A stretch of DNA of 64,000 nucleotides from Cristatella mucedo (lineage: Eukaryota > Bryozoa > Phylactolaemata > Cristatellidae), in assembly GCA_009760855.2 (NCBI GenBank), contig WPIO01000008.1, positions 7,736,001 to 7,800,000 on the forward strand. Reading direction: 5' to 3'. Positions 12,772-64,000 of the stretch are shown piece after piece. Under the pieces are notes generated by a model. It was not told the origin of the DNA, did no database searches, and worked only from the letters and a program-made list of their open reading frames with translations. Every line of letters begins with the position of its first letter. Positions within the stretch are counted from its first letter, which is position 1. A program made the translations under genes and the position numbers.

Positions 12772-12776
12772 TTTGG
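12772..12776. repeat. Target-site duplication, left (TTTGG)
   Basis: TTTGG immediately precedes the 5' LTR and is repeated exactly after the 3' LTR. A 5-bp duplication is the usual footprint of Ty3/gypsy and Copia-type integrases. Confidence 0.85.
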
Positions 12777-13087
12777 TGTAGTTCGATTGATTGCATGCGG
12801 GCTGGTACCGCTCCTATCCTAAACAGCTGCTGGGAGCATCCTCGAGAGGGGCCTGTGCACAGCTGTGGTCCACTTCTAATGAGGCGTTGACACAGGCCGA
12901 TAAGCCGCTGGTGAACAGATGGTGGATTCACCATCGGGGTCGGCCAAGGCACAGCCGGAGTCGAGGAGAAGAGACTCGAGTGTGAGAAGGGGCGAAGGCA
13001 GTCGTGCGTCTTGCGGCTCCGTTCGTCGGATAATAAACTATTAGCGTTGTGCATCGGCTGGCACTCTAATGTGCGAACCGAACGACA
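12777..13087 (+). repeat. 5' LTR of a gag-only retrotransposon
   Basis: This 311-bp repeat begins TGTAGTTCGATTG and ends CCGAACGACA (canonical TG...CA). It contains a poly(A) signal AATAAA at 13032-13037. It matches the 3' LTR at 14268 over its full length, at roughly nine identical positions in ten by eye, with one 4-bp ATTG length difference. Confidence 0.9.
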
Positions 13088-14103: not shown

Positions 14104-14267
14104 CCAGCCAGCCTCTGGGGTCAGCTATTGATGTTGGCTGCTATGCCGATACGGCACTGCATGTGTCGTGTCGCATTTTTAGAGGCTTGGCTCGATCAAT
14201 GCTGCCCTGTACATAGCAGCTACATGTGTCGGTGCTGCAAACTTGTGACCTTAAGGTCAAGGGGGCG

Positions 14268-14575
14268 TGTAGTTCGATTGCATGCGGGCCGGTACCGCTC
14301 TTTTCCTAAACAGCTGGTGGGAGCATCATCGAGAGGGGCCTGCGTACAGCTGCGGTCTGCTTCTAACGAGGCGTTGACACAGGCCGATAACCCGCTGGTG
14401 AACAGATGGTGGATTCACCATCGGGGTTGGCCAAGGCACAGCCGGAGTCGAGGAGAGGAGACTAGAGTGGGAGAAGGGGGCGAAGGGAGCCGTGCCCCCC
14501 TCGGCTCCGCGCGTCGGATAATAAACTATTAGCGTTGTGCATCGGCTGGCTCTCTGCTATGTGAACCGAACGACA
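14268..14575 (+). repeat. 3' LTR of the gag-only retrotransposon
   Basis: 308 bp, TGTAGTTCGATTG to CCGAACGACA, with AATAAA at 14520-14525. It is the direct repeat of 12777-13087. Confidence 0.9.
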
Positions 14576-14580
14576 TTTGG
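14576..14580. repeat. Target-site duplication, right (TTTGG)
   Basis: Exact repeat of the pentamer at 12772-12776, directly after the CA end of the 3' LTR. Confidence 0.85.
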
Positions 14581-16140
14581 CCTAGTCACTTTCCGGCGAT
14601 TTTCAATTTCGACGGATCATAATGGACTGCCGCATTTTCCCGGGCCTTTGCCGTCGATCGCCATGAATTGTCCTCAAGATCGAACGGTCAGAGCGAGTTG
14701 AAAGTATGTTCGCGGCGGGCAGCGATACGTTACTTGGAACGAGAATTGGAGCTTGGTTCGCCGATTTCCCGTCAATTTGCCATTGATTTCGGTATGGTCC
14801 CAGCCATTGCTTTCGATTGGCATGCATTGTTGACAATTAACGTGCAAAATAGCTTGAAATTCCTACGATTTCACTTTTAGCTCAAAGAAATGTGATATGG
14901 GATGACAGTTGGCACTTAGTGCAGGCAATATGTGGTCGACTTGCCACGGATTGTAGTGGATTGCTGCTTTAATCCGAGCAGTTGCCGTAGATTTCCGTGC
15001 ATTGCCCAAGATTGTACGAGTGAAATTGCTTAAAATGATGTGGTTGACTTTAACCAGTGTGCTTTGTAACATGGATTCAAAATAAGAGCATTGCAAAACC
15101 CATTTCAGGGCATTTTGCATCAGAATGCTGCAGATTGCAGTATTGGCCCGAGCCATTGCAGTCGATTGCAGTTAATTGCTGCCGAATGGTCAAGGTAATT
15201 GTATAGAAATTGTGCGATTACAAAATAATCTAAAGTTAGAGCAACGTACAATCACTATTAGAGCTTGAAGTGTACGAATTCTGGTCGTTTTGCAGCGGGT
15301 TTCGGTGGATTCACGTACTGGCCCGGGCCATTGCAATCGATTGCAGTGCATTGCTGCAGAATGGTCGATGCAATTACAGTGAAGTTATGCGAGTACGCAA
15401 TTACCGAAGAATCGAGCAGTGTCCAATCAAAATTAGTGCTTTTAGTGTACGCATTCCGGTCGCTGTGCGGCGGATTGAAGTGGATTGTGACATGGGACCG
15501 GGCCGTTGCAGTCAATTGCAGTGCATTGCATGAGGACGCGTGTGCACAATAGAGCGAAATTTTGTTGGTGCACTTTGAGCTGAGTCTAGCCTTATATGCA
15601 ATGTAATTAGACCTTCGGTGGCGATTTGAGGATGGTTTGCACTGGAATAGAGTAGATTTTGATAGTTTCTAGGCTCTTTCAGGTGACTGCCGCGCATTGC
15701 CACAGTGCGAGGATGCACATTTTTTTTTATTCTATGTGGGTGTGCACACCACACGGTGCACTTTAATATGCAATAAAACTGGAGCTCGACCCAACTTAGT
15801 TTGACTTTTTTGCTGTGGATTTTGTGGATTGAAGTGGACTGCAGTATTGTCCCGGGCTACTGCAGTGGATTGCAGCGCATTGCACGAGAACGGCCGTGCC
15901 AACGCAAGTGAAAGTTTTTTGAATGCTATTGCCGCAGAGTGTGCTGTCATATGCAATCAGAAAGGAGCTTTTCGAACAGGATTTCTTTCGTTGCGGGGTG
16001 GAATGCAATGGATTGCCGTGGATTGCGGTATTGGCCTGGGCCACTGCGATATTATTTTAGTGGACTTCATGAGAACACGTGAGCGTTATCTCGCGAAACT
16101 CTCTGGGTACATTGCACACGCAGCGTAGTTTGATATTTCA

Positions 16141-16600: not shown

Positions 16601-18269
16601 TATGTATTTTTTTATTTATGAATGCGTGTTATCATCCACCGCCTGCCTCAATGCAGCACAAATGAGCCTTTGAAGGCATCTCTGATTGGTAGTGGTGGCT
16701 TCAGTCCGTCTTGGACGAGAAGCTCGGACTTGCGAACATCGTATACGCAAACGATACAGCTAAGACCTGTTGAAAGTTATTCTGATCGTTATTTGACCGT
16801 AGCGCATAACAAATCACGTGCTTTTCGATATCTAAACGCTTATCGCTTCGGGCTGCTGGGTCTCCCACGCCGGCGGCTGCCTTAGCTACGCCGGCGGCTA
16901 GTAACCTGCTTGTTAGTGATGATCGTCAGCAGCTGCTATCGCTTCGTCATCGTAGATCAAATGCATTCCTAGATATTAATGTAGTTGCTAAGATTCATGA
17001 ACTACGCATTAACAAAAGAAAAGCTCCCAGTAGCCGCCGCGGTGACCGGAACCGCCAGGTCAGACGCCGCTCGTTGGGCGGGAACTTCGAGCTGAGTACC
17101 CGCTCGTTTGGTATTCCTAGCATTGTCTCGAACCGCTCAGCACGCTCCCCCACATGCGTCACTGTGAATCTCTCTAACTTAGTGGTCATCAGGCCTGTTA
17201 TAACTCCATCGGCCCGACTTAACGCTTGCCTTTGGAATTCTCGCTCAATGTTCAATAAACCTCTGGTAATAAGAGACCTTATTTCGGAAATTGGTCTCGA
17301 CCTGCTCGCCCTAACTGAAACTTGGCTAAAATCGATAAACTGTCTGACAATTAAAGACGCTACCCCAACTGGTTTCTCATTCTTTCACACTGCAAGATCA
17401 ATCAAAACTGGAGGTGGAGTTGCTGTTATCGTACGCTCGAAATTCAACCTCAAGCCATTTGCAGTACCCTCGAAGCAGTCTTTTGAATCAATTGTCTTGG
17501 TCTCACCCGAAAACTACCTACCGATGGTGGCAGTAGTCTATCGCCCACCAGGTACCAAATCCTCCTTTATCTCAGATTTCTCCGATCTCATTTCGATTCT
17601 GTGTGCAAGAAATCGATCCTTCCTCGTTATGGGTGATTTCAACGTTCACTTTGATAGCTTAACTGATACTTTTCCTTTGGACCCTATTCCCACTGTCCTA
17701 CTCTTACGTTGCATTGATCTGCTGCTGCCATGCGTAACATTAATATGTCATTAGCCTCAGGTTATATGCCAGCACCTTTCAAAAAAGCTTTAGTCAGGCC
17801 ACTTCTCAAGAAAGCGATACTAGACCAAGAGAACTTGAGCAACTGCCGCCGAGTCTCCCTTCTACCATTCTTATGATAGACGCTGGAACGGGTCGTGGAG
17901 GACCAGCTGAACTCATATACTGAAACTTCAAACCTTGCTTGTAAGTTCCAGTCTGGCTTTAGAGCTAATCACTCCACAGAATCAGCATTGCTTAGGGTGT
18001 ACAACGACCTACATAGGAATGCAGACATGGGTAGAGTATCTCTGTTTTGCTTGATCTCTTGGCAGCTTTTGATACTATAGATCACCAAGTTCTTCTAGAG
18101 CGCCTCTCATCTCGCCTGGGCATCACTGACACTGCTCTGCAATGGTTCAGGTCCTATCTCAGTGGGAGACTCCAGAGTATTGACGTGAATGGACAAAGAT
18201 CATCCAAGGTACCTCTGAAATATGGGGTACCTTGGGGCTCCGTGCTAGGTCCGGTTCTTTTCACGGTTT

Positions 18270-18545: not shown

Positions 18546-19500
18546 ATAAATAAATAATAATAATAATAATAATAATGCACTTGATAAGCCGCCCTCAGAG
18601 AACTCAGTCTCTTTCTAGGCACTTTACATTTGCTACAAAGGGAAACGCGATTGAATGGTGAGCTAATATCATGCTTGATAAACAACATGAATAACATGGT
18701 TACGGGTGACATGCACTGGGTCAGCATGCAAATGTGGTTAGTGGCAGCATGCACAGTGTCAGCACACATAAGCACATAAAGGACAAATCACAGGGACCCA
18801 CTAAATGCTATCATAAATAGGTGTTTTTAAATTCTTTTTAAATGTGGTCAAGTCAGGGGTTGTTGTGACGCAATTCGGGAGTGAGTTCCAGGCTTTGGGA
18901 GCATAAGAACTAGAAAACCCTGAACGACGGTGTTGATATGTTCACTACATTTTGTAAGGCAGCACTATGATTTAGCTTGCATGATATTTAGCAAGAGAAT
19001 AGAGTGTGCACGGTCTCCAAAGGATTTGAGGTTTGTACGAGGTATTGGTAAACTGTTGGATTCCGAAAAGCAGGTGGTACGATGCTTGGCCTGGCGGGGG
19101 GGGGGGGAGTAGATCTGAGAGATAGGCTGGAGCCAGAGAATGAAGTGACCTAAAAGTGAGCTACAAAACATTGAAGTCGATCCGTTGCTTGACTGGTAGC
19201 CAGTGCAGGTCGGCAAGAAGTGGTGTGGTGTGGCAACTGCGACGCACACGACAGACAAGCAGAGTTTTGCACCAGCTGTAATCGCCTGATTGCACATGCC
19301 GGTAGGCCAGCAAGCAGTGAGTTACAGAAGTCAAGACGGGATGTCACAAATGCATGGACCAGATAAGACGTGGTATCTTTATCTAAACAAGCCCGAATTC
19401 TAGCAATGAATAAAATAATTACGGTTATCGGCATCATATGCGACTTGTATCCCAACTGATCGAACCTTAGTAGATCGCTATAGATGCTCGAAGCTTGTTG
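18546..19500 (-). mobile_element. LINE 3' half, opposite orientation
   Basis: An ATTATT-type tail at 18548-18576 (seen as AATAATAATAAT) and a 3' UTR reverse-complementary to 31.84-32.06 kb are followed by the ORF2 C-terminus on the minus strand (TSRLDFCNSLLAGLPACAIR, RLQLVQNSA). It abuts the + strand LINE at its tail, so it probably inserted into it or joined it later. Frameshifts are present. Confidence 0.8.
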
Positions 19501-19838: not shown

Positions 19839-20097
19839 GGCTGGCTGCTAACACGTTCACGACCTACGACCGTAGCTGCAGAGTTTTACAGCACCAACAG
19901 CTGCAAGCGTCCTATCGGGCGGGCTGCAAGAAATTGCCCGCCAGACGGCGAAAGTAGCGTGCGAAGGCTGTGACGCACCATTACGACCCTCTCTTCTCCG
20001 TCTTGCTCGTTTCTCTCTCATTCTTCTAGAGACGTCGTCGCCGACGCGCCCTGCGTCTCGCCGACGACGAGTGGGACTCGTCCTCCGTCGGAATATA

Positions 20098-20225
20098 CTC
20101 GCGCGATCGGCGCTTTAGTCGCATTGTCCTTCCCCCACCCCGCGTGCGCTTTAACCGAATTGCCCCCCCCCCTTCCGCCCCGCACGCACTTTAGTCGAAT
20201 TGTACCCCCACCCCACCCGCGTACG
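20098..20225. repeat. Short tandem repeat, about 41-bp unit, 3 copies
   Basis: Three imperfect units of GCGTGCGCTTTARYCGAATTG followed by a C-rich tract. Confidence 0.65.
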
Positions 20226-20850
20226 CTTCTCACCGCGAAGTCGTCGTAGCGGTGCTGCCGTACAGAAGCCGCTGCTTCGCAGCGGCTTAGAATGGAGTCG
20301 TCTGAGTGAAGATGGAGCGAGAGAAGCTAAACACAGCAAAGCACCGGTTCCTCGCAGCATTTGAGGGAACCGTGCGGAAAATGTCCTTTGCGTGCTCACG
20401 CGAGCTGACACTGTGCAAGCTATCGCCGAGCGCGCCGACGCGCTTCCTGGGCAGCGTAATTGACGCGCCAAGACCGAGATTCGACTCTCTGAGGGAGCCG
20501 TGCAAATTTTTTCTGTTACTGTAATTGTTATCATTATCAGCGAAGTGGACCGGCCATTCGCCATAGCCAGCGTAGCTCTAAAGCAGACGACCGAGCCGCT
20601 CTGCGCCGGGCGTGGCTCGAGGCGCCGCGCTAGCCTGTACGGCCGGCCGGCCATGCGCGACGTTACATTATGGCCGCTGACGAGCAAGCAAGCTCTGCGT
20701 CCCTCGCGCCCTGTAATATGAATTGCAAGGAAGTTCAACGAACCGAGTAGCCCGTAATGAGACCGGGAGCGGTTCCGTTAGCGCTGTCTAGCGCCGCTGG
20801 GCTCGACGTCCCCAGACGATTCCAGCAAACTTCAGGGCCCTCGTCACCGC

Positions 20851-20870
20851 CGCCGCCGCCGCCGCCGCCC
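20851..20870. repeat. (CCG)n microsatellite
   Basis: About six CCG units in the GC-rich block. Confidence 0.8.
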
Positions 20871-23854
20871 TTGTGCCGCCCGCAAATGGCGCTGCGCTCG
20901 CACGCGTTCGCGCCGGCGAAATCGTTTTAAGCGGCGGCGCGCTGCTAGCTACCTTTTTCAGCTCTGCCAGCCGCGGATGTACGCGTGAACTCGGCTGGGC
21001 GAAGCGGGTCGAGCGTTGCCCGCGCCTTGCGCCGTTTCGGTACTCCGCGACGGGTCGGAGGCGAGAGAGGGCGGTAGCTGCTTGGCGACTAGTAAGTCAG
21101 CAGCGCTTGTCCGCCGTCACGTGGACGCCTGCGACCGTCGGGCTCGCGGTTGAGGGTGGGGGCGGCGGCGGCGACGAGCGGGACAAAAGTTTCGTGCGCA
21201 GTCGGCTTTCTCGCAGGCAAAGATAAAGTCGTGAAGGCGCGCGCGCGCGCATGACTCGCGAATGACCGCTCTTTGCTGCCTACTCAGCTGAGTTTGCTGC
21301 TCGCGCGCGCACCGTCAGAGCTGGGAGCCCGCTAGCGTCCGGCCTCTTTCGGTCCTCGCCCGGCCCCTTCCGGTAGTTTCGCGGCGCTCAAAGCTAAGCC
21401 TTGCGCAAATCTACTCCCTCTGCATCTTGTAGAGTCGGGCGCTTTGCCGCCGCGATCGAGCGCACGCGGGAGGGGCGGGGCGGGGCGGCGCGTCGCGGCG
21501 CCCGATCGAGGTTGCGCGACGGCTACAACGGAAGCGCTCGACGCAGCCGAACCCAGGTCGCTAGCGCGCCGCCTACGCGTCTCGCGCTCTATGAATAAAT
21601 AATTGCCCAAAGAGCTAGGATTTTCGCGTCGCCGCGTTCAGCCCGAGCGGTTTTTAAATAAGTCCTTTCGTCGAGGGCGGCCGTCGTAGGCTGCGGCCGA
21701 GGCGGATCGGCGACGCCTACAAGCGCTAGCGAGGCTGCTACCGGGCAGTGAAGACGCCGGCACGCAGCCGAGCCACCGCTCTCGCGGCGACGTCCGTCCG
21801 GTAGCTTCTGACTGCTGACTATTGTCGACATTCGATCGGGGTTTCTTGATAATGCAAGAAAGCGACTTTCGTCAGGGGGCGCGCGGCTCCGATTAAATGA
21901 GTTTCTTCGGTTAACGACGGGCGATCTGGGAAAAATCAATGGCGTCTCCCTGCCGAAGCGAGCGCGGCGCACGCGGCTGCTTGGGCGAATGCGACTGAGT
22001 GTGGAGACGCGGCCGACCTCGCCCTCGGCGAGCGCGAGCCGCTGCAGCTACCGCGTCATTCGCTGCCCGACGCCCGGATTTTCGCCGTCCGTTGCCGCCG
22101 CGGCGTTTGGCCGCGGCGGCGAAGGCGGTGACGAAGGTGGCAGCCACCGCTAGGACGTCGCGACCGACCGGGACGCTTAGTCGGCTAAGCTTGCTAAGCG
22201 GGCCAGTGAGCTCACGCGTGCTCCTCTCAGAGGCTCGGCTTAATGATTCGCGCCCCCACTTCGCGCACTGAGCACACAGCGCCGGCTGCGGCCAACAAAA
22301 GAGCCAGAAACGCGACGAGGATTCTCCTTGCGGGAGGCCGCCGCGCGCCGCCCTGCGCTGCCCGGCGGCTCAGCGCCAGCCGCCCGTCAGCTACGCGTCA
22401 TTGGCCCCCGATCAAATAGCGCTGAGCCGCCGCCGCCGCCGCTAAGCGGCCGCTATATTGCGCAAGGCGGCCGGTGCGACGGGCGCGCTCGGAAGGGTTG
22501 CGCGCTGAGCGGCTACAGTACAGTCGGTACAGTACTACCGGTACAGTGTCTGGCGAGAAATTGCAAACCGCACGAGTGGCGCTCGCACCGCGCGCAAGCG
22601 CGGCGCGTCGCTCCTACCGCCGGCAGCGCACTCGCCGTTTTCGCTCGTTGCGCATCGACGCACAGCGAACCCTCGCTGCCGCGGTGCAGGCGATGCACTA
22701 ACGGGCATAGGGGGACGAGCGGCTGGAGGTGCATCGCGAGACGCCGTCGGCTGCTGAGTACCAGCCACCCTCCCTCCACCGCCACCCAACCCGTCGATTC
22801 TCGTGCAATGGCGCGCGCGAGCGCGGCCGCTGGCTGTACTTAGCCGCTAGCGCGCCTACTAGCTCAGCTGTCCCGCCATGTAGGCCCTGGCGCTTGACAG
22901 CCGCCGTTGGCATGGAGAAGCGACGCCGCTCAATAAGGCGATTGACTTCGGCAGCCGCCTCGGCGCAGACACGCCGCGCTGTCGTCTGGGGATCTTTAGA
23001 GAGGCGGCTATCGCGGTCGCGCCGAGTTCCGGCCGGCGCTGCACGGGCCGATCTATTCACCGAACAAGCAGCGAGCGTCCTTTACCTGGCGCGGCCGCAT
23101 CAATTACTGCCGCGTCCGTTCTGCCCTCGCCGCCGCGGAAGCGCCGCGATCGGACGAAGGCGAACGACTAGAGGCGGTGGCGGCGGCGGCGACGGGACAG
23201 TCTGGCGAGCCAACAGCCGCGGCTGCCTCTGCGTCAGCGTGGTACCTGCGACGGTCCGCACTGCATTTCAGGGCAAGGCTGCGACAAGTGCGCTCCTTCG
23301 CCAGATCCGTCCCCAGAGGGCACCGCTCCGAGACGCCGAAGACGTCGAAGACGTCGACAGTAGCCGCGTGCTTCGCGTCCTGGCTGGGCCACATTTCACG
23401 CAATCAGATGCGCCGGCGCCTGCGAGCGTGCGCGCGCCGCAGCGTGCGGGAGCGCGCGCGCTTTCAACGCGCTTCGAGCTCGCCGTCCGCCCTCGGGCGC
23501 CGCTGTCAACTCGGCGACGCGCCGCTGTGCCAATAGGCGGACACAGCAGCGCTAGGAAAATCAGGTCGCTGACATGTTCGGCGGCGAAAACCTGCGACCG
23601 TCCGATAGCGATCGCGAGGTTCACCGACGCGAGCGTTTCGACGAAAAGCAAGCTCGTCGTCGCGACTTGCCGTTCGCTAGAGATCGTCTGAACGTCTTGT
23701 ACACGAGCGTCTACTGGGCGTGCCCAGCTAGCTGCACGGCGGCTTTAGCCACCAGGGGGCGGGGTTAAGGCGCTCGCACTGGGCGACCTGCGAGGCCTCT
23801 GCAGCGAGCAGGTCTTTCGTTTGCCCACCGCAAGCGGGCGGATGTAGAAATATA

Positions 23855-23975
23855 ATTAACTTGTAAAGCGCCCTAGGAGACGTAGTCGCTGTCCAGGCGC
23901 TGCACGTGTACCGCAGCGCTCGACTCCACGACCTCGGCCGTCAAAGGCGAGCACCTTAACAACCCCCTCACCCCC
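23855..23975 (-). mobile_element. SINE family B (old copy)
   Basis: GTAAAGCGCCCTAGGAGACG, CAGGCGCTGCACGTG, CCACGACCTCGGCC and GCGAGCACCTTAAC follow the SINE B order on the minus strand. The copy is diverged and GC-shifted. Confidence 0.65.
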
Positions 23976-26900
23976 CCACCGCCGGGCCTAACCTGGGCGG
24001 CATAGAGGCCGTCGGCTCTTGGGTAAAGGATGCGGTCGAATCGGCCATTTATCTTTTTTTCCCTCTCTCACTCGCACTGGCCTCTCTACTTTCAACGGAG
24101 CAGCTCGCTCGCTCGCCGCCAGCCTTCGGTTTTCTCGCGAAGGAGGAAAATGCGCCGCCGACGGCTGTCGTCGCGTCTATTTCCGCCGCCGCTCACGACA
24201 CGAGCTGCCTCGAGCTTCTTCTCTTCGGCTACGAGGCGCGCGCGCGCGGCGAGAGCGCACTCGCCGGCTGCGAATCAGCCGCCTCTGCGAGGGCTTCGCA
24301 GCAATTTAGGAGGAACGAAATTGAAAGCGAAGCAAACTACGCCGCTCCTCGTCGGCCCGGCCTCGCTAGTCGCGCCGCGCAATCGACGCTGGGCCGGGCG
24401 ACTAGCGTTCAGGACGACCCGCTCGCTCACGCCGCGCTCCGCAGCAGCTGACGGAGCGCGGCGTGCCGGCGGCGCACGGAATAAGAGCCCGGTCCGACGG
24501 AGCGGCGTCTACTCGCCAGCGGCAGCGCTGGCTCGCGCGGCCTCGCGGGCCGCGATCCGTCCGAGGTATCGGCTGCGCATCGGCTGCGACGAGCCGTCGT
24601 GCAAGCGCCATGTGGCGTCAGCGCTCGAACAGCGCCGGCGCCGGGCGCGCGTCGCCGCCTCCGAGAGCGTTCGTTTCTCGCTTCCGCTCTGAGCAGCGTC
24701 GACCGGAAGCGGAGATGCTCAAGATGCCCGGCGCGCCCTGCCAGTCGCGTCATCAAGAAAGAGTACGGTCGCGGAGAGCCGCACGGTTTTAGCACCAGCG
24801 CGGCTTGGGTGGCAGCGTCCTTGGGTCGGGCGAGCGCGACTCGTAGCGAGGCGCCACGTGGACCTGCTTTTGAAAACGAGGCCGCAGCCTGTGGCGACCG
24901 GCTGCATGCGCGGCCGTCTCGTTGGCCGTACGCGGCGTCTGGACACTGCTGTCGCAGGGTGGACTTCTGCCAAGAGGAGCGAGGTACTACGTCCGCCGAC
25001 GGACGCCTTGCTAAAAAGGGGGGGGGGGTTGTCACACGGATGCGTGCGACGTCCGGGGCGGCGACGCGCGGCGGCTGCCGGCGGCGAGATGATAGTCACT
25101 CTCGAGATCTCTCGCGAGAGAGTACGGCGCCTGCAACTGCTGCGGGCGCTCGCCCATCGCCGCGAGGCAGACGGTCGGCTGAGTCGGCGCGTTCACTTCG
25201 ATCAATGTCTTGCGCTGCGGATTATTGCGACTACGCCGACGACTCCGCCCACTGAGTAGCTTTGTCACGACGTGTCCGACGAGGGTCACGCGCGCTAGCG
25301 TCCTAAATCGATCCGATTGCGACGGCGATCGCTAGCGAGTCGTTAACGGTTCCTGAATTGTACTAATTGGAATTCGGATACGTCTGAAGCTACGCCTTAG
25401 ACGACATATAAAAATGGAAAATGGCTATAAAAATATAAAATAAAGGCGAAAAAAGGCGATCGGGTCTGACGATTAAGGTCTTATGGCGCTGCCGCGGTTG
25501 AATGGCGTTGTTAAGAGCTTGTTTTATTGAGGTTTATGGTTGTACGGGTTATCTATTTTGAACGAGGGTGAGTCGCGGTCTGCAGAGAAGGGGCAGGGGG
25601 AACGCGGGCGCAGGAGAGGATGGTAGCGAGCCGTCGCCCTGCGAGCCCAAACGAACAGTTCCTCTTTGACGTTCGGCTTTTCCGTAACGCTGCTGACTTG
25701 CTGTAGACACGTCAAACCGCAAGGAGCTCGGTATGCCACGGCCGGTGCTACCGATGCGTTGCGCACGTGTGTGGCTCGGGGAATGTACCACCATACGTTA
25801 AGGAAGCGGACTCATAATTAAGGTACGCGAAGCTCTCGCGCTCTGCACGGCGGCTGCGCCACGCCTCCGCGGTGGCTGCCTACGATCCGAGCGCCGCGGA
25901 GACGCCGCACTTCGTCTCTTTGTCACGCCTCGACGAGGAATAGCCAGCACCGGCGACGTGCGCTGCATTTTTGCCAAGGGACTTGGAGCTCAGGAGCCGT
26001 AGTGCGCTGCCTCCAAATTATGTTGTCTGACCAAGTTCATTGATGAAAAGAGCTCCAGTTACTCCTCCTTGGTTACGGAAGTAGTGGGAAACGGCGGCGG
26101 CGCCGAGACGGAGCGGCTGAAAATGCTTAGCTCAAGCGAAAGTGTAACTGCCTCTCAAATGAAGCCCTCGTTTGTTCTCTAAATTGTTTCTCTTTACATT
26201 TCGCTCGAAATCGCTTACCTCCAGACATACGCATGTGCACATGCACTCGCTGAAAGCTGGGAGAGGCGCGCAGAAACAGCTCACAGAAGTCCAAGCTGAG
26301 TAATACTGAGCGTATCGGAATGGCTCGGGCGGCGGCGGGAAGCGATCGAAAGTGCAACGGTCTCACGCACTCGGTGCAACGCTCGCGCGGTCCGCTTCGC
26401 GGTCGCTCGCACCCTGCAGGTAGGCTGGATTCGCCTACGAGACAGGTCTTCGCAGAATCTCAGGTAATCTCATTCTATAATTAACTTTCATTGCCCTAAT
26501 TAATCTACTCTCTGTCGCCGTCATTTACTCAGCCTTTCGAAGGTTCTTGAAGATGCTGCGATTGCCATCAGCTGATTCAGCCGGATGCGAAATGCCACTT
26601 CCAGCGGGTGCGCCATTCTGAGGCAACAGCGCACCAATGACGTTCGTTGCGCTCAGAGAAAGCGCACGCCCGGGCCTCGTAGCCCCAACGTCCGCCTAAG
26701 CGCGAGGCGTTGGCACTTTACGACTCCGAGCTCGAATCCTTCAGCAGGCCAGTCCTCATTTGCTGCCCTGCGCTCAAATTGCGAGCGAGCCGACGTGATC
26801 GATCGCTTTTGGATTCGATAACCAGCCTGGCGATCGGGTTTAATGCTAACCGTTGCGACTCGACGCCATTCCTCGGCAGCCCCGCGGCGTTCAAGTTGGT

Positions 26901-27481
26901 GCGCGTCCTTATCACTTCCTGGCAATCAAATTAGCGCCCGAACCGGCAGCGCACGGACGCGCGCTCGGCGGCTGCAGCGAGTCCCATTAACAGCGGCGTT
27001 TGCGCGTGAGAGCGGCGACCTTTCCTCTGGAGAGATTTCTGCGTAGCCAACCCGCGACGCAGAAATGTCTCCGCGTCTAGTCTGTCTCACTCTCGAGGAG
27101 CGAGCTCGCGATTGGCGCTTGATAAGGGCGCTCGCTCTGCCGCCGCCGCGCACTCCTAGTGGCGGGGGCGCAGCGGCTAGACACGCGGCGGCCGCACCGG
27201 ATCGCGGCCTCTGCCGCAAGGTCTCTGCGGAGCACCGCAAGGAGGCTGGACCTTCCGGCAGGCCCTTGGCTGCAAAATGGCGAGCGACGCCATTTTAAAT
27301 TCCGAAAGCAGCTCCGACTGAAGTGGCAATCGCACGGCGGCGACGAGCTGCTGAAAGAAGGACGCGAGCGTGCGCTGAACTGATCTGTCGCGCGCGGACA
27401 GTGCAGTAGAGCGTCGATAAATAGCGAACGGTCTAATAGCCTACGGCGACAGCGAGTGGAGACCCCGCGGTGGTAAGCGTC

Positions 27482-27545
27482 AGAAAGTCCGTCCGCGCGG
27501 ACGGACGTCCGCGAGAAAGTCCGTCCTCGAGCGGACGGACGTCTG
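27482..27545. repeat. Two tandem palindromes (GTCCGTCC...GGACGGAC)
   Basis: 27487-27506 is a perfect 20-bp palindrome. 27519-27540 repeats it with a TCGAGC centre. The unit, including GAGAAA before and GTC(C/T)GCGAGA after, recurs at a 32-bp offset. Confidence 0.85.
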
Positions 27546-28574
27546 CGAGAGGAGCAACTCCAGCTCGCGCCGACCGGACGTCTGTCGCCGCGTCATCCGT
27601 TCGTTAGCATCCTCGGACTGGGCGGCCTCTCGGACGAGCCTGTACAACCGCCGCCGATGCATCGCCGATGCGTCGCTTGAAGCTGCGGCTGCTGCGGCGA
27701 GTAGCTCGAACGATCTAATCGGCCGCCGGATCCCCTCTGATGATAACATCCTTCCTCCTCGACGGCAGCCGAAACGCGGCAGCAAAAACTGCCCTCCCGA
27801 CGGCTGCGAAAAAGCGCCGCCATCAGTTAAGCCGTCGTTTGTAGACGTGGCCGCGCGCGGTTCGTCTTCGACGAGCGCGAACTCGACGTCGACAAATTAA
27901 GAAACTGCGAAGGCTGAGTCGGAAATGCAGGTAGCTGGAAAGTTTGGGATCCGCGAGCGCGCGGATTCGGAGGAGCGCCCCTCGCGGCGGTGGCAGCAGC
28001 GGCGTGACTTTCGATGCGGCGAAGCTGATGATGAGCGGCAGCAACCTCAAAGGTGCGCTCGTATTTTTCGCAGCGCCCTCCGGTCCTAGCGCGCGGGGCA
28101 TTACTATTCCCACCGCCTTCCGTAAAGATTCCCCGCTCGGTGTTCTTTTTAGCACGCGGTGTGCGAGTATAGTCGTTAGCCGCCGGTAGGCCCCTCGGGT
28201 CTGAGCTCGTTCGCAATCAGTCAGCTGACCGGAGCGGATACGACAACCGGGTCTCTCAACGGCGACGGCTCCGTTGAATGCTTCACTTGACGCACAGCGG
28301 ATCCCGCTTTTGAGCGACCATGCGAATCCGGCGAATGAGAAACTCGAAAAGGAGTTTGGCCACTGGCAACGTCGTTGAGGCGCCCCGCGAACGGCTGAGA
28401 AACTCGGACGTGCTAGCCATAAACAAGTCGGCCCTATTAAACGCAGCTTAACGTGAAAAGGATGGACCGCGTCTCCACGCTCTATCGGAGCCGCAATAGA
28501 TCGCATTGTAGGCTCGCCGCAACATTGTTTAACCGGGTGGTCCAGGACGGAGCTGCAACACAAGATATCTATAA

Positions 28575-28712
28575 CAATACATATCATTTATACAGCGCCC
28601 TAAGAGAACTTAATCTCCATTCAGACGCTTCGCACATGCCACGGGGCTCGAGCCCACGACCTCGGCCAGACCTCGGTCGGGGCGAGACATTAACCGCTGG
28701 GTCATATTAGAC
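28575..28712 (-). mobile_element. SINE family B
   Basis: TATACAGCGCCCTAAGAGAA is the tail on the minus strand, then CAGACGCTTCGCACATGCC. GGGGCTCGAGCCC gives the B box and TTAACCGCTGGGTCATA the tRNA-like head. Read 5' to 3' it is a tRNA head plus a LINE-like tail. Confidence 0.8.
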
Positions 28713-29099
28713 CAGCAGGCATTGCCGCAACCTCTGCATAGAAACAGGTCGGACGCGCGCCTCGCCGCCGGAGCCTCGCATTGCGCGAGCGGCAAGGCAA
28801 AGCAGTCGACGTGTCGGTTTTTCGCGAAGGCCAGCGCCAATGTAAATGCAAAGAATCGCGGCCCACGGCCGCGTGAGGCTTATCGGGTCTCGCTCTGTCT
28901 AGCGCTCGCCCGCACATCTCCGCTCGAATGCGCAGGCGATCGCCGCAGTCCGCCGGGCGCGGCAGCGGCGGAGTCGCCGCCGCCGCCGCAGGTGGGAGCA
29001 GGCGCCGCGAAGCTGCGCCGCGCCGAGTCCGTCCGCGCCGCCGGCGCCGCCGGCGCAGTGACGCGCGCCACCGCTGGGTCGCACTCCGTCCACGTCTAC

Positions 29100-29130
29100 C
29101 GGCCGGCCGGCCGGCCGGCCGGCCGCCGCG
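29100..29130. repeat. (GGCC)n tetranucleotide run
   Basis: About seven GGCC units within the GC-rich block. Confidence 0.85.
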
Positions 29131-29363
29131 GCGTCGAGTTACGGCAAATCGTTGCCGCAGCGCATTGTGCAAACGCGGCCCGGGTCGCGCCGGAGGTGCC
29201 GCCGGCGCGAAAGGCCCGCCCCATTCAGAGCCCGCCGCCCGCCAATCGGCTGCCGGCGAAGTGGGCGGGCGTCGGGTGAAGTCGCCGACCGGCCCGCATT
29301 TAGCCTTGCACCGAGGGCGGGTGTGTCCGCTCGCAGCCGCTATTTGCGCAGGTGGCAAGTGAA

Positions 29364-29365
29364 GC

Positions 29366-29439
<74 letters not shown>

Positions 29440-29474
29440 GTGGAAACAAGGGAGAGAGAGAGAGAGAGAGAGAA
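29364..29474 (+). repeat. (GA)n microsatellite
   Basis: Two purine runs, 29364-29433 and 29453-29474, separated by GCGAGAGGTGGAAACAAGG. Confidence 0.95.
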
Positions 29475-31114
29475 GAGAGAGAGAGAAGAGGAAGACTAAA
29501 AGCACGGACGAAAAGCGGGCAGCAGCCTCCGGAGCGTCGCCTGCGTGGAGGAGACGGGACGGAGCGCGACGGAGGAAGCGAGCACGCACGCACGAAGGCC
29601 GTGAGTAGCGAGCGGCCCGCGAACCGACGCTTCGTCCCTCCGATCGCGCGGCGTCGTAGCCGCGCGAGACGCTATCTGCGGAGGAGGCGAGCGCGCACGC
29701 TATCCGGCAAGGTCCGCCTTGGCGGCGACCCGAGGCGGCATCTTCGCCGGTGCGTCGGTCTTCGCGAGCGCTGAGTAGGCGGTTTTCGCGGGTGACGAGC
29801 TCTGCATCGGCTGCTGCTGCTGGGCGGCGGCGGTCGGCGACGGCCCTAACCCTAAGCTAGGTCGGCGCGTCGGCGGCCAGTGGGCTGCCAGCACGAGGCG
29901 CCTCGCTCGGTGATGAATCGTGGGAGGCAGAGAGGAATGACTGAAAGCTCGACGCCTCAAGTGTCCTCTACTCGCGTCCTGTGCGTGGCGACACGCGTGG
30001 GAACGCGGTCGCACCCTCGCCATTCTGCTCTCTCTCTCTCTCTTTGTATCTCTTTCTCAATCTAGAGGGCAGCTCTCGAGCCAAATATGAACCGCTAGAA
30101 ACGCGCCGGTGGCTGACAGCAGTCGGCAGCACCGCAGCCCCGCCGGCAGCTGGCGCGTCAGGGTGGCGGCGCCGGTTCAGCGGGCCGGAAATGCAGCACC
30201 GCCCGCCCTCAGCCCGCTAGCGAGCGTCGGCCAAGGCTGCGGATGCCGCCGCCGCACTCGCGCCGGCGCGGGCTGGGCGACGGGGTGCGAGCGTGCACGC
30301 TCTTCGGGTCGGCGGCTCGAGCGAGCTCGTCGGAGCGCTCTCGGCGGGACGCTAATGCCGCCCGAGGCTGTCCCACTTGCCACCTCAGCGGGCGCCGCGC
30401 AGAATGCTCTCGCACCCCGAGCGCGTCATGCCCCGGCATGAGGCAAACGACGGGTGACAGATAATAAAAGCGCTGAGGCTGCTCGCGCGGCGGGAGCCGC
30501 CTCTGGCGTGCACACGACCGGGCGGCAGCCCTGCCCGGCCGTATCTTGGGCCGTGCCGGCGGCTCGACCGTACGCGGCGCAGCGCTGGCCTCGGTCTGGG
30601 CTCGTCGCCAGCTTTCCGGATTCGGCGTTCGCGAGCAAGCGGGCCTTTCATCGCAGCCCCGAAGATGGCCCGAGACCGGATCGAATAAGCCGACCCATTA
30701 TTGTCGAGATGATCGACGGGTGATTTTTGCAGGCGAAGCTACGACGGCCAGGTCACATAGTCCAGTAACCTTTCCCCGGTGTGCTGCCCGACGGCAGCAG
30801 CAGCTGCTGCTGAGGTGACTGAGGAGGACATTTCGTGGGGCGGCTTCTGCAGCCACGCCTCCTTCTGCTTCTGCAGCCGATGCCCATCAATTCAGCCTCA
30901 GCCGCCTGACGCAGGGCCGGGATAATGTTCCGGCAGGGCTTGGGGTTACTTGACTCAGAGTGACGCTAAAGGATTCGTCTGACATTGGGCAGTGCCCCCT
31001 CCCCAAGCCCGAAGAGGGCAGGCCCACTTGCCATGCCAAGGGATGCTGTGCAGAAGGGCAGGACAGGCACACAAGACGAGGGGGCGGCTCCTCGCATGGC
31101 TGCAGTCAGGCCAG

Positions 31115-32062
31115 GATATTCCAGAGACAATGATGATAAAACTAACCTATTAGTTATGGGCAAAGCAAGTGTGATTCGGAAATTGGAAAGGCTAACACTC
31201 AAAATTGGCTCTGCCAGCATATTTTCTGTTGAATCAGCACGAAATCTAGGTGTCATGTTCCAAAGTGACCTCTCGGTTAGACGACCATGTCGGCTCTACA
31301 ATCAAGTCTGCCTACTTCCAGCGACATAACATTGCTAAAATTCGGGATTGTTTAGATAAGGTTAACACGTCTAAGTTGGTCCACACATTTGCGATATCCC
31401 GTCTTGACTTCTGTAACTCACTGCTTGCTGGCCTACCGGCATGTGCAATCAGGCGATTGCAGCTGGTGCAAAACTCTGCTTGTCTGTCGTGTGCGTCGCA
31501 GTTGCCACACCACACCACTTCTTGCCGACCTGCACTGGCTACCAGTCAAGCAACGGATCATCTTCAAGGTTTTGTAGCTCATTTTTAGGTCACTTCATTC
31601 TCTGGCTCCAGCCTATCTCTCAGATCTACTCCCCCACCAGGCCAAGCACAGTACCACCTGCTTTTCGGGATCTAACAGTTTACCAATACCTGTACAAACC
31701 TCAAGCCCTTTGGAGACTGCATTTACGTTCCCAAAGCCTGGAACTCACTCCCGACTTGCGTCACAGCATCCCCTTACTTGACCACGTTAAAGAACTTAAA
31801 AAATGTAGGACATCATTTAGTGGGTCCCTGTGATTTGTTCTTTATGTGCTTATGTGTGCTGACACTGCACATGCTGCCACTAACCACACTTGCATGCTGA
31901 CCCTTTATATGTGACCCCTAACCAAGTTATTCATGTTGTTTATCAAGCATAATATTTCTCACCATTCAATCGCGTTTCCCTTTGCAGCAAGTGTAAAGCG
32001 CCTAGAAAGAGATTGAGTTCTCTGAGTATGGGCTTTATCAAGTATTATTATTATTATTAATT
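31115..32062 (+). mobile_element. LINE, 5'-truncated, 3' end intact
   Basis: The ORF2 C-terminal region starts with LLVMGKASVIRKLERLTLKI and continues with RLDFCNSLLAGLPACAIRRL and LADLHWLPVKQRIIFKVL, in frames broken by indels. The 3' UTR then has GTAAAGCGCCTAGAAAGAGA and the TATTATTATTATTA tail. This is the best 3' end in the window and the reference for the minus-strand copies at 8.4 and 18.6 kb. Confidence 0.85.
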
Positions 32063-33077: not shown

Positions 33078-58269
<25,192 letters not shown>

Positions 58270-59369: not shown

Positions 59370-59377
59370 TGCTAAGC
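59370..59377. repeat. 8-bp target duplication, left (TGCTAAGC)
   Basis: Identical to 59557-59564; 8 bp is the hAT-transposon hallmark. Confidence 0.9.
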
Positions 59378-59556
59378 CAGCGGTTCTCAATCTTTTATAA
59401 ATGCCGCGAACCTCTAATACAGTGCCTCATATTTGTCAAACTCAACCATGCAATTCTTGGGTGCAAAATGGGGAAATGTGTTTTCCGATGGTCTTAGGCG
59501 TGCTGTGAAAGAGTTGACCCCCAAAGGGGTCGCGACCCACAGGTTGAGAACCGCTA
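59378..59556. mobile_element. SPIN-like hAT miniature transposon (179 bp)
   Basis: The ends are inverted repeats (CAGCGGTTCTCAAT... and ...TTGAGAACCGCTA) flanked by a perfect 8-bp duplication, TGCTAAGC. The right end read inward (GCGGTTCTCAACCTGTGGGT, then CGCGACCCCTTTGGGGGTC) and the internal TTTTCCGATGGTCTTAGG are, from memory, hallmark sequences of the SPIN (SPace INvaders) hAT family known for horizontal transfer between distant animals. It encodes no transposase and is non-autonomous. The left end has diverged after the first 16 bp. Confidence 0.85.
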
Positions 59557-59564
59557 TGCTAAGC
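59557..59564. repeat. 8-bp target duplication, right (TGCTAAGC)
   Basis: Exact copy of 59370-59377 directly after the hAT right end. Confidence 0.9.
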
Positions 59565-60080
59565 AGTGTTGCTAAATACGACGAAAGTCTCAGCGGCTCT
59601 TTTAAATTAATTCGAGCGATATTTCCATCGCACGACAGTCTACGTACCGGCGGTGAGCGACCGTGCGCTCACGACTGGCTGCGTAGTAGGGTGCCGTTTT
59701 AGAGCCTACTATCGCCACGAAGCTACCACTGCTGCTTGCTTCTCGTCTGGGTAGACGCCAACGTGGATGCTGCGGGCGTAGGCGCCAGCTCGTGCCACGA
59801 GCTGGGTGCGTGGTAGCGCGATAGCTGCGTCGCTTCACGTCGAAAACGCGATACGGGAAGCTTAGCACAGCTGCCTGGCCTTGACCCTGCTAGGTGACCT
59901 TGGCGGTCATTGGAGCACCTCACGTCTAGCCTCGCATGAGCGCCCTGCCTTGCGGCTAAAGAGCCAGAAAGAGGTTTCCATGAAAGGGAGAGCAATTATA
60001 CTATGTAATAGATCTTAATTAACTTTTTGTTCTTTACAAGAAATTTACGTTTCTAATCCATTTGGACATACATATATAGA
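59565..60080. other. Gene-free spacer
   Basis: GC-mixed DNA with a 10-bp-arm palindrome (CCAGCTCGTG/CACGAGCTGG) near 59,788. No coding support. Confidence 0.5.
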
Positions 60081-61048
60081 AAATAACTATCGTTCTGCAA
60101 AACATTTTGCTTATGCGGTCAGCGATTACATTTTGAAATTCTCCAGCTGTACTGTCGGGTACGATGTGGACAGCGGGTTCGCACATGAAACATTCGTTGT
60201 GCGCCTGCTCAAAAACAGGGAGAGTTGGGCGTACACAGACAACACTAGGGAGTATTATTCACAGAACGTAGCAGCAAACAGTGCAAGTGCCTTAAATGAG
60301 CATTTCAGCAAAGGTCATTGTGGAGTGCGAGAACGGTAAATGGCCAAATTTGATTTCCAGTTTTACAGCCAAATTATTTTTCCTTCCGGCATGCTCAAAG
60401 GCTGGTTTAGGGGTAAACAAGAGAGTCGTGACGTTTGCCATCCCAAGAGTTTGGTGGGAACCGACTGACCACCGCTCAAGCTTTACTCCTACTTTTGACT
60501 GGTGGACCTTTCCAAACATCGAACTGGTAAGAGCGCCCCCGCATCATGAATCCACACATTCCATCACTCATCACACCAGCGCAACTGTGCGCTGAGTTCC
60601 TCGGCTCCTCTCTTCTGGAGAGGAATCAGTCATCTTCAAGAAAGAGCCACAATTCAGACAGCGAGGAAGGTCCAGGCAAATCCAGGTTTCAATTTCACAG
60701 ATGCGGCTGAGGAGAGGAAGTCATTCATTCCCAGCCGGAAAGGTCTAAAAAATCTAATCACATTCTCGGTCTTAACCAATTTAAATGCTGAGCTTCTGCC
60801 ATCTGGGGTCAAGAGATGAAACTTGTTGGATGAAAACGTGAAAGTAACTGATCAGAGAAAGCGTCGCCAACTTTTTTTTTGGAACTCCTACAGTCAACAA
60901 GACGGGATGTGCGTCTGCAACAATATTGCCGCTCTATTCGAAGCTATAGGAATCACGTGTGATCCGAGGGATCACGTGCGATCTGAGTGAATGGTGCCTA
61001 TTCAAGGACAACTCATCCTGGAGCCTCAAATCCACAGTTCCGCTTTAT

Positions 61049-61066
61049 AACTCGAGCAAGTATCAA
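61049..61066. repeat. 18-bp target duplication, left
   Basis: AACTCGAGCAAGTATCAA, identical to 61182-61199. Confidence 0.9.
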
Positions 61067-61181
61067 ACTCAAAACAGAAAATATATCCAAAAATGCGCTT
61101 ATAATTAACATAAATATAAGCACTCTGGCAGCCATGCTAAACAGCCTGCAACGGGCATTGTGCCAATAGCAGTCGCCGCTG
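61067..61181. mobile_element. Repeat R1, copy 2 (retroposed, 115 bp)
   Basis: Homologous to 56209-56321. It interrupts the pseudogene reading and is bounded by an exact 18-bp direct repeat. Duplications of that length are typical of target-primed reverse transcription, so R1 is probably a short retroposon or a truncated piece of one. It has no pol III boxes and no A- or simple-repeat tail. One frame through both copies is open to the same stop. Confidence 0.85.
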
Positions 61182-61199
61182 AACTCGAGCAAGTATCAA
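61182..61199. repeat. 18-bp target duplication, right
   Basis: Exact repeat of 61049-61066. Confidence 0.9.
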
Positions 61200-61270
61200 T
61201 CTCTCTCTTTAGCTCACTGTGTGCGCATCAAAGAGGACGTACAGGAGCAACACGCGCTGTCGGGTTGATG

Positions 61271-62255
61271 CCGGACAAGGCTCTGGCATCGTTCCCAATC
61301 GCGTGGAAATAGCGCGTACAGCGTCTTTCACTTGTTTCAAAGCGCATGCATTAACCATCGTGGCGTACTACTTACTGCACCAGGAGTTACTGTGTGCAAG
61401 TGCAAAATGCCAATATGTACGCGTATGATCTCATAGCGGCCATTAAACTGATGCATTAATGTAGATAGAGAATGCACGTATTTACTTATGCTCGGTTAGT
61501 GGTATTTGTTTCTTGATTCTTAATGGAATTATAAAAACATATTTATTCAGAAAATATTAGTCGTGAATGCAAACGACCGTGCGACGCGGTTTGGGAGAGA
61601 TTTCACGCTCTCAGCACAGTTTAATTGTAAAGAGATAATACAAATCCAGCATGCGCCGCGTGGATGGCTGGGGCGCTATTAGAGATGAATTTACATACTG
61701 CGCCAGTTGGAGCGGACGCTGAAAGGACACGCCGACAATCTGGCTGTGCGCATGCCTCCGAGCGGCTGCGGGGTTACATGGCTCGCACCACCTGCCGCCA
61801 TGACTGCTACATTAGTCCGACAACATACCAAACTCGACGACCTACGCCAAGGTTGCCAAGGGCGTTTGACGAATGCCAGCCAGTCCAGTCCGTAGTCCTG
61901 CGAAATCAAAATAATGAGACCGGAAGTCCGTAGCGAGCCTGCCCTCGCTCCGGCGCGGCCCCACTTCCTCGCTGACGTTTCGCCACTCTGCATGTTGGAA
62001 TGATAAACTTAAGACCTACTCAACCGGGGTCCCTCCAATTCTGGGCACCCTGCTTCCACTTGACCTTTGCCTAGACGACCTTTACATCCGCTTCGCCGTC
62101 GCGCCTGCTCGCTTTCGGCCGCGTCGCGTTGCGGAAAGCGATTTGACTTTGCATAGATTGGGGCATAGCAGCCAAGTCAGCCCAAGTATTTACGTGTAAC
62201 TCCCCCCCACCCCACCCACCCCACCCTCTGGACATCTGTGGTTCCCTCGCTGCAG
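61271..62255. other. Gene-free spacer
   Basis: AT-rich to 61,650, then GC-mixed; a C-rich CCCCCCCACCCCACC run lies near 62,205. No gene or repeat recognised. Confidence 0.45.
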
Positions 62256-62451
62256 GTCGTCCTACGTGAGCGACGAGGAACTCACACTGGCGGCGAAGAA
62301 CTTGGCAGCTAATCTTGTCTATCGCAAGTCGTGGCGAAGCGCCGTCTGCTTTTTTCGGCCAGAGCCTTTGGCGTTCTGCAACCTAGCAGACTCTTCGCAC
62401 AAGAACGTAGTGCACTCGTTCTGGATTCAAGCACCTCTTTCTGGATTCTAG
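62256..62451 (+). CDS. Possible exon (unidentified)
   Basis: A strong polypyrimidine acceptor (TTCCCTCGCTGCAG) is followed by an open frame beginning SSYVSDEELTLAAKNLAAN, which looks coding, to a stop at 62449-62451. No neighbouring exon was found. It might be a lone exon of a gene running out of the window or a processed remnant. Function unknown. Confidence 0.25.
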
Positions 62452-62765
62452 CACCCAGCTCGTCGTGGAGTCCAGCGGAGCACTAGCTTGCGGCGCAATG
62501 AAGCAGTTGCAGTGCATAATTTTGAAGCGCTGACCCCGTACACGTCGGCCGAACGCACGGAGTACGAGGCGTCTCGAAACGCACTCGAAACGTAATCGTA
62601 CGCTCGTATGCAGTTGTAGTCACGCGACCTCTATAAACCACCGCCCCGCTGTAATGGCACCCGAACAAAGCATTCTCTAGATAGACGATTTGCATCGAGA
62701 GACCTACGACTGAGCCGGGCAGACGCTCGTAAACTTGCCAAGCACAACGCGCGCAAGCACCGCCG

Positions 62766-62804
62766 CGTTCGTCTGGACGCGAAGGGTTCGCGTCCAGACG
62801 AACG
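62766..62804. repeat. Perfect 18-bp inverted repeat, 3-nt loop
   Basis: CGTTCGTCTGGACGCGAA and its exact reverse complement flank GGG. Confidence 0.95.
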
Positions 62805-63439
62805 GCCCCCCGTAGTCTCCGACGCTCGCGCGTCAGAAACCAACGAAGAGTAAAGTGTGGGGCGGCACCGACGCCATTCTGCTGCGGAGGGATCTTTGGT
62901 AAACTTGTCGTCGAGCGCCTCTCGCGCTGAAAGGGACCTCACGCTGCATTTCGGCGTCTCGCCCTCGCCGCGCGACACCGCATGCGAGCTTTAAGCGCGC
63001 GAGCCTTTCTTGAGCGAGGAAGCTCTGCGGCGCGCAGCGTTCGAGTGAACGCGCGGCTGCCTTTAGTAGGAAGAAACGGAAGTAGCGGATCCGGCGAGAG
63101 CGTCGCCTATTGAGCTGAGCAGCTTTGCACCGCGCCGGCGCGGCGGTCGCCGCTGCGCTGCAGCCAAGCCACACCCGCTTCGCCCTTTGTTTTGCGACCG
63201 GCGTGCGACCATCGCCGCCGCACGAGCTCGCTCCGCACGCGCGAGCGACGCCGCCCGCCAATTTCTCCGAGCGGCGGTTCCGGCCGGTGGCGTTCTTGTC
63301 GCGTCTTCGTTAGCGGCGTATTTACGCTTTACCACCGACGCTCGGTAAACGGAGAGCGGGAGACCGCCCGTAAAGCTCGCTCGGGTCCCGCGAGATCGAG
63401 CCATTAGCGCCTCGGCGGTGGCGGCTGGAGGCGTCAGCT

Positions 63440-63467
63440 GGTGGCGGCGGTGGCGGCGGCGGCGGCA

Positions 63468-63502
<35 letters not shown>
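63440..63502. repeat. (GGC)n microsatellite
   Basis: GGTGGCGGC phrases leading into about eleven pure GGC units. Confidence 0.95.
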
Positions 63503-64000
63503 GATCCTGTCGCCGTAGCCGCTCGGATTGCGCCGTCGCCGAGCCACGTGATCGGCGCTACCTGGCTAGTGGCAGAGGCGGCGGACGCCGCTGCCGCCGC
63601 CGCAAGGATAGCGCGGTATCAATGACGGGGCGGTGAAGAATCTGGCGAAAGCCCGGCGCTGGCGGCGGCGGTGGCGACAGCGGATAATCTAAAACAAAAT
63701 AAACAGCGGAGGCGAGAGCAAAGAACGCCGACCGCGGCGCAGTTCGGCGCCGCTATTTGCCGAGGCGCTCCGCTGTCGTGTCCCGCCCATTGACCGCGGC
63801 CGGCGCGGCGCCGGCCGAGCGAGGCGCCGTCGGCAAAGTAGGGATCCGATAAGGTGGCCCCCAACCGCCGCCGAAAGTCACGAGACGGCGACCCGTTCGC
63901 AGCCGACTCGAGGTTTTTGCTGGCTGTTTACGCTCCGCAGCGAAGTGTGCGGAGGAGGGCAGAGGGCAACGAGGGCGTCGTGCTCGCCGCCGAGACGGAC

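What the first reader, a model, noticed from the sequence alone, without database searches (positions are those of the whole stretch)
59370..59564. SPIN-like hAT MITE with perfect 8-bp target duplication
Seen: inverted ends CAGCGGTTCTCAA/TTGAGAACCGCTA and TGCTAAGC on both sides. The right end and the internal CCGATGGTCTTAGG match what I remember of SPIN elements, a hAT family spread horizontally among tetrapods and reported in a triatomine bug and a pond snail. A copy here would extend or place that host range.
Basis: partly seen in the sequence, partly recalled or inferred. Interest (0 to 1): 0.75.

Follow-up and report, generated by a model that had tools for sequence, protein, structure and literature searches.

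The report
SPIN jumping-gene copies in a non-vertebrate genome
A short, non-coding jumping gene next to a receptor gene is one of many copies in this animal's genome, and their shared sequence looks almost the same as the SPIN family that jumped between mammals, reptiles and other animals, which points to transfer between distant species.

Summary
59378-59556 is a 179-bp element with 13-bp inverted ends and a perfect 8-bp duplication, TGCTAAGC. The host assembly (572 Mb, 688 contigs) gave 40 scored places, the window included, out of 1,801 loose candidates. I fetched the 39 others; 38 could be delimited. Of these, 30 have duplications matching at 6/8 or better, and 29 of the 30 are centred on TA, the target consensus of TcBuster; SPIN belongs to the Buster group (PMC3499496).

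It predicts the first 85 bases of the 187-bp genome consensus without error and 78 of the last 79. A printed mouse primer matches 19 of 20 bases. So this is very probably a SPIN MITE; no database reference could be compared. The middle of the element differs from the recalled one.

A receptor-gene exon near the element is 39/76 identical to human DDR2, which suggests a non-vertebrate. Horizontal transfer is inferred. Whether a transposase exists is unknown: that search did not complete. SPIN in invertebrates is already known, so this is a new member of a known kind.

The parts
59370..59377 (.). left copy of the 8-bp target-site duplication, TGCTAAGC (fits nnnTAnnn)
   Evidence: consensus nnnTAnnn for TcBuster from PMC3499496, passages
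59378..59556 (-). SPIN-family MITE, 179 bp, too short to encode a transposase; the minus strand reads in the orientation of the recalled SPIN consensus
59378..59390 (.). terminal inverted repeat CAGCGGTTCTCAA
59485..59498 (-). internal block CCTAAGACCATCGG (plus strand CCGATGGTCTTAGG); part of a 24-nt exact match to the recalled SPIN sequence and of a 17-nt exact match to a printed mouse primer
59527..59538 (.). subterminal palindrome GGGTCGCGACCC, possible transposase contact site (function inferred)
   Evidence: TGGGTCGCG subterminal repeats reported for Buster1 in PMC4298943
59544..59556 (.). terminal inverted repeat TTGAGAACCGCTA
59557..59564 (.). right copy of the 8-bp target-site duplication, TGCTAAGC
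57718..58269 (+). open frame holding the last kinase part of a discoidin-domain-receptor-like gene; its stop lies about 1.1 kb before the element (context, not part of the element)

Best explanation
59378-59556 is a non-autonomous hAT element of the SPIN family (Buster group). Shown: inverted ends, an 8-bp duplication with a TA centre, and many dispersed copies with the same structure. Inferred: a SPIN transposase encoded elsewhere bound the subterminal GGTCGCG motifs and the TIRs, cut the element out, and joined it to a staggered cut at an nnnTAnnn site, which gave the 8-bp duplication. The MITE probably arose by internal deletion of an autonomous SPIN that entered this lineage horizontally. 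Copies have since decayed (median K2P 0.062 from consensus in the 38 examined). It most likely does nothing for the host.
For: Structure of the window copy. Copies: 40 scored places of 1,801 candidates. Of the 39 others, 38 were delimited; 16 of 38 have a perfect 8-bp duplication, 30 of 38 match at 6/8 or better, and 29 of those 30 have TA at positions 4-5 in at least one flank. Two further copies, 90% and 91% identical to the consensus, turned up in 195 kb of DNA taken from 20 arbitrary places. The consensus of the 38 others matches the recalled SPIN sequence over 85/85 bases at one end and 78/79 at the other. Within those two ends the window copy departs from the consensus at 29 sites (18 substituted, 11 missing); the recall, typed before the other copies were seen, agrees with the consensus at 29 of 29. 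The window copy aligned to the recall scores 134 against a maximum of 30 in 1,000 shuffles. A mouse Kcnq1ot1 primer printed in PMC6221546 matches the consensus at 19/20, and murine rodents are listed SPIN hosts (PMC5857283, passage). PMC3499496 (passages) places SPIN in the Buster family and gives nnnTAnnn for TcBuster. A host exon is 39/76 identical to human DDR2.
Against: No SPIN reference from a database was compared. The middle of the element does not match the recalled one. The window copy is an outlier (K2P 0.143 against 0.033-0.110 for the 38 others) yet has an intact duplication. 8 of 38 delimited copies have duplications matching at 5/8 or fewer, and one of 39 could not be delimited. 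No transposase was found, because the searches did not complete. Nine pattern and BLAST searches of prokaryote, phage, plasmid and viral collections gave nothing, as expected for an animal element. Horizontal transfer was not tested against host gene divergence.
Confidence: 0.93

Rival explanations
1. A hAT MITE of another Buster-group family whose ends resemble SPIN (for example OposCharlie1/OC1, hAT1, Buster1 or a host-specific family).
For: Several hAT families share similar CAG..GTTCTCAA-like ends (recalled). The subterminal TGGGTCGCG motif is also reported for Buster1 (PMC4298943). The middle of the element differs from the recalled SPIN element.
Against: Agreement with the recalled SPIN reaches 85 bases inward at one end and 79 at the other, far beyond the TIR. 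Buster1 and Buster2 ends in PMC4298943 Table 1 (for example CAGGGCTTCTTAAAC; CAGGGGTGGCCAACCT) differ from CAGCGGTTCTCAA. The mouse primer match falls in the inner block. OC1 and hAT1 sequences were not compared.
Confidence: 0.05
2. A SPIN family inherited vertically since the common ancestor with tetrapods.
For: None found. Only one host genome could be examined.
Against: Non-coding ends 163/164 identical to a mammalian family (recalled) while a nearby receptor kinase exon is only 39/76 identical to human. The 38 copies are only 0.033-0.110 K2P from their consensus.
Confidence: 0.03
3. Vertebrate contamination or a mis-assembled fragment.
For: The match is to a family known from vertebrates.
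Against: The 40 scored copies lie in 28 contigs, 25 of them longer than 1 Mb. Flanks of the 38 delimited copies share only one match, of 16 nt, between two of them. Two copies were present in the 20 arbitrary stretches.
Confidence: 0.01
4. Chance inverted ends and repeat.
For: Short TIRs and 8-mers do occur by chance.
Against: 0 in 20 shuffles; many structurally equal copies elsewhere.
Confidence: 0

Closest known systems
SPIN (Space Invaders) non-autonomous elements of tetrapods (Pace et al. 2008, recalled, not read; hosts listed in PMC5857283, passage)
   Same: TIR, 8-bp duplication, 85 + 79 terminal bases matching at 163/164 positions (recalled sequence against genome consensus), size of about 200 bp
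   Different: The middle differs; the host appears not to be a vertebrate; the consensus here is 187 bp against 225 bp of the recalled element
SPIN_NA elements of Rhodnius prolixus (PMC11614815, passages)
   Same: SPIN MITEs in an invertebrate, attributed to horizontal transfer from tetrapods
   Different: Sequences not available here, so not compared. Rhodnius is AT-rich (recalled), whereas the sampled GC here is 46%
SPIN-like hAT of Biomphalaria glabrata, about 1,000 copies (PMC5440852, passage)
   Same: Invertebrate, SPIN-like, many copies
   Different: Sequence not available here, so not compared; snail genomes are AT-richer (recalled)
Buster1 / Buster2 MITEs (PMC4298943, section 5 part 1)
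   Same: Buster group; subterminal TGGGTCGCG repeats in Buster1; invertebrates, and a bat for Buster2
   Different: TIR sequences differ; lengths 246-908 bp

Membership tests
hAT superfamily | 8-bp target-site duplication | tested here: met
   Window copy 8/8; 16 of 38 other delimited copies perfect, 30 of 38 at 6/8 or better, 8 of 38 worse. Ends were chosen partly by duplication match, a mild bias.
hAT superfamily | short terminal inverted repeats | tested here: met
   (the window's right end reads CTA where most copies read CTG)
Buster group of hAT | target-site consensus nnnTAnnn | tested here: met
   Window TGCTAAGC; 29 of 30 copies with a recognisable duplication. The consensus is printed for TcBuster (PMC3499496); its extension to the whole group is recalled.
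SPIN | terminal and subterminal sequence of SPIN | tested here: inconclusive
   85/85 and 78/79 against a consensus recalled before the copies were seen, and a printed mouse primer at 19/20. Strongly in favour, but the reference is recalled and not from a database.
SPIN | internal sequence of a known SPIN MITE | tested here: inconclusive
   The middle differs from the one recalled element; no other SPIN MITE could be compared. MITEs of one family often differ inside (recalled), so I do not count this as defining.
SPIN | autonomous partner encoding a SPIN transposase | not tested
   22 requests for PF05699 in the host genome did not complete (last)
SPIN | patchy distribution by horizontal transfer | tested here: inconclusive
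   Family ends near-identical to recalled mammalian ones against a 39/76 identical receptor exon; no relatives of the host could be searched
MITE | short, non-coding, many copies of uniform length | tested here: met
   179 bp here; 181-191 bp in the 38 others; 40 scored places

The most novel reading that the evidence does not exclude
An undescribed SPIN invasion of a protostome: one horizontal arrival, a host-specific MITE made locally by internal deletion, and expansion to thousands of copies. The host could be a blood-feeder or parasite and so a bridge between vertebrate hosts.
Probability: 0.4. Interest if true: 0.65.

Novelty: new member of a known kind. Interest (0 to 1): 0.45.

Why it matters
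SPIN is one of the clearest cases of a mobile element crossing between distant animals. Each further invertebrate host narrows down how it travelled. Once the host is named, the family here can be dated and compared with SPIN from tetrapods, Rhodnius and snails.

Tried and rejected
Looked for other SPIN sequence in public collections: phages and plasmids by blastn, five exact patterns in viral contigs and two in genome contigs. All nine gave nothing. These are prokaryote and virus collections, so this says little.

Looked for the SPIN sequence in print, four searches. One search (inverted-end words) found eight papers, seven listed, whose titles concern other subjects; none was opened. Searches found none. 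One search found one, the mouse primer (passage). The main SPIN papers (Pace 2008, Gilbert 2010, Gilbert 2012) and Arensburger 2011 are not held; a fifth look-up also failed.

Host identification failed. Seven requests for PF00115 (COX1) did not complete. Samples of 600 bases from 20 contigs chosen as probably small (one proved to be 2.6 Mb) showed repeats and gaps and no mitochondrial gene that I could recognise by eye in the longest frames. The view that the receptor gene is of protostome type rests on recalled motifs and is a lead only. Rfam and tRNA searches of the window gave no match.

A single-strand DNA fold of the element is more stable than shuffles (z -2.83, 1 of 200 shuffles as good). 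This is expected from the inverted ends and was not pursued.

Considered and rejected: chance, contamination, vertical descent, another hAT family (see rivals). Age in years was not estimated, because no rate is known for the host.

Two statuses in the membership table were lowered or changed to inconclusive because the reference is recalled.

Full report
What is there. The element runs from 59378 to 59556, 179 bp, with TGCTAAGC on both sides. Its ends pair over 15 nt at 93%. A window-wide scan for 8-bp repeats around matching ends finds this element and two overlapping microsatellite hits; 20 block shuffles find nothing. At 179 bp it is too short for a transposase, and none of the 71 frames of 150 codons or more covers it. 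Within the window it has no other copy; the next blastn match has E 0.11.

Copies. The host assembly, reached once, has 572,011,866 bases in 688 contigs, and the window is part of a 12.8-Mb contig. Of 1,801 loose candidates the tool scored 40, each matching at E 3.1e-34 or better, the window copy included; the best other is 81% identical to the window copy. The tool says that counts of repeats are lower bounds. The 40 lie in 28 contigs, 25 of them longer than 1 Mb. I fetched the 39 others. Of these 38 could be delimited by both ends; L016 could not and was dropped before the counts. Lengths are 181-191 bp. Duplications: 16 of 38 perfect, 30 of 38 with at least 6 of 8 matching, 8 of 38 with fewer. 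Of the 30, 29 have TA at positions 4-5 in at least one flank. My script picked ends partly by duplication match, which favours duplications a little, but it did not look at TA. The flanks share one match of 16 nt between two copies and nothing else at E 0.01, so the insertions look like separate events.

Copy number. Twenty 10-kb stretches (195 kb without N) held two matches, 90% and 91% identical to the consensus, each lacking a terminal part in the alignment. Positions were arbitrary, but the contigs were ones that I knew or its like to hold a copy. Scaled up, that is about 5,900 copies, with a Poisson 95% range of about 700 to 21,000. The number is therefore rough.

Which family. At that time I had seen the window copy and a mouse primer, and no other copy. 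The window copy aligned to it with a local score of 134; 1,000 dinucleotide shuffles reached at most 30. Because I had read the window copy, shared stretches are not an independent test. The copies give one. Their consensus, made without the window copy, is identical to the recalled sequence over the first 85 bases and at 78 of the last 79. Within these ends the window copy departs from that consensus at 29 sites, 18 substituted and 11 missing, and the recall sides with the consensus at 29 of 29. The recall therefore described letters that I had not yet seen in this genome; one of them, next to the inner block, may have been known to me from the primer. The middle of the element does not match the recalled one.

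Independent print evidence is thin but real. A search for the inner 14-mer, on either strand, in 5.39 million papers found one paper: a mouse Kcnq1ot1 primer in PMC6221546 (passage), not labelled as SPIN there. It matches the consensus at 19 of 20 bases and the window copy over 17 consecutive bases. PMC5857283 (passage) lists murine rodents among SPIN hosts. PMC3499496 (passages) puts SPIN in the Buster family and gives nnnTAnnn as the TcBuster target. PMC10512250 (passages) gives nTnnnnAn for Hermes, which TGCTAAGC does not fit. PMC4298943 (passages; section 5 part 1) reports TGGGTCGCG subterminal repeats in Buster1; the window copy has GGGTCGCGACCC at 59527-59538.

Age. The 38 copies lie 0.033-0.110 K2P from consensus, median 0.062; without CpG sites the median is 0.051. 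They are the best matches to the window copy, not a random sample. The window copy lies at 0.143, and at 0.146 without CpG sites. It is older than the rest or derived from a divergent source copy. No date is given because the host's rate is unknown.

Host. A discoidin-domain-receptor-like gene lies before the element. The frame at 50100-50684 matches the DDR DS-like domain below the Pfam cut-off and no solved structure. The frame at 43925-44421 matches human DDR1 first. The kinase frames at 57718-58269 and 57244-57615 list an EGFR chain first by E-value and human DDR2 next; a further kinase piece lists ROR1 first and DDR2 second. Four of the seven frames given to Pfam had no match. The exon at 57244-57615 is 39/76 identical to human DDR2 over the aligned part. 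In a vertebrate I would expect much more (general knowledge). Sampled GC is 46%. I could not name the host.

Mechanism. Shown: ends, duplications, dispersed copies. Inferred: cut-and-paste by a SPIN transposase supplied in trans, target choice at nnnTAnnn, origin by internal deletion, arrival by horizontal transfer. The transposase search (PF05699) did not complete (22 requests, last), so its absence or presence is unknown. A regulatory effect on the receptor gene, whose stop is about 1.1 kb away, was not tested and I do not claim one.

Known and new. SPIN in invertebrates is on record for Rhodnius (PMC11614815, passages) and, as a hAT of about 1,000 copies with significant identity to SPIN, for Biomphalaria (PMC5440852, passage). 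The pond snail Lymnaea is recalled. Passages of PMC11008031, PMC5331948, PMC5791352, PMC3942097, PMC13155389 and PMC7093834 added background only. It is a new member of a known kind.

Noticed in passing
window 59378-59556: The window copy is more diverged from the family consensus than any of the 38 others examined (K2P 0.143 against 0.033-0.110) but has an intact 8-bp duplication; it may come from a divergent source copy.
   Followed up: partly
window 43925-58269: Discoidin-domain-receptor-like gene on the plus strand, with discoidin, DS-like and kinase parts in separate frames; the kinase reads DIA where human DDR2 reads DFG.
   Followed up: partly
window 16810-17754: Open frame with an endonuclease/exonuclease/phosphatase domain, probably a non-LTR retrotransposon fragment.
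   Followed up: no
window 18561-19408 and 31330-32059: Two inverted copies of a repeat in two aligned pieces, 396 and 348 long, 92% and 87% identical; ends not examined.
   Followed up: no
window 12301-13087 and 14267-15056: Two repeated pieces, 67% and 89% identical, that lie in opposite order in the two places, so they are not simple long terminal repeats; a gag-like frame (impression only, no Pfam match) at 13045-14103 overlaps or lies between them.
   Followed up: no
window 34579-34877: About 21 nearly perfect copies of a 14-bp unit.
   Followed up: no
window 20001-32000 and 60001-64000: GC up to 0.65 with CpG observed/expected of 1.13-1.40, against 0.67-1.02 in the other 4-kb bins: island-like stretches.
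   Followed up: no
L070, L075, L076, L078, L080, L085, L087: Contigs of about 20 kb in the host assembly show similar translated runs in 600-base samples, which suggests tandem or satellite arrays (by eye).
   Followed up: no
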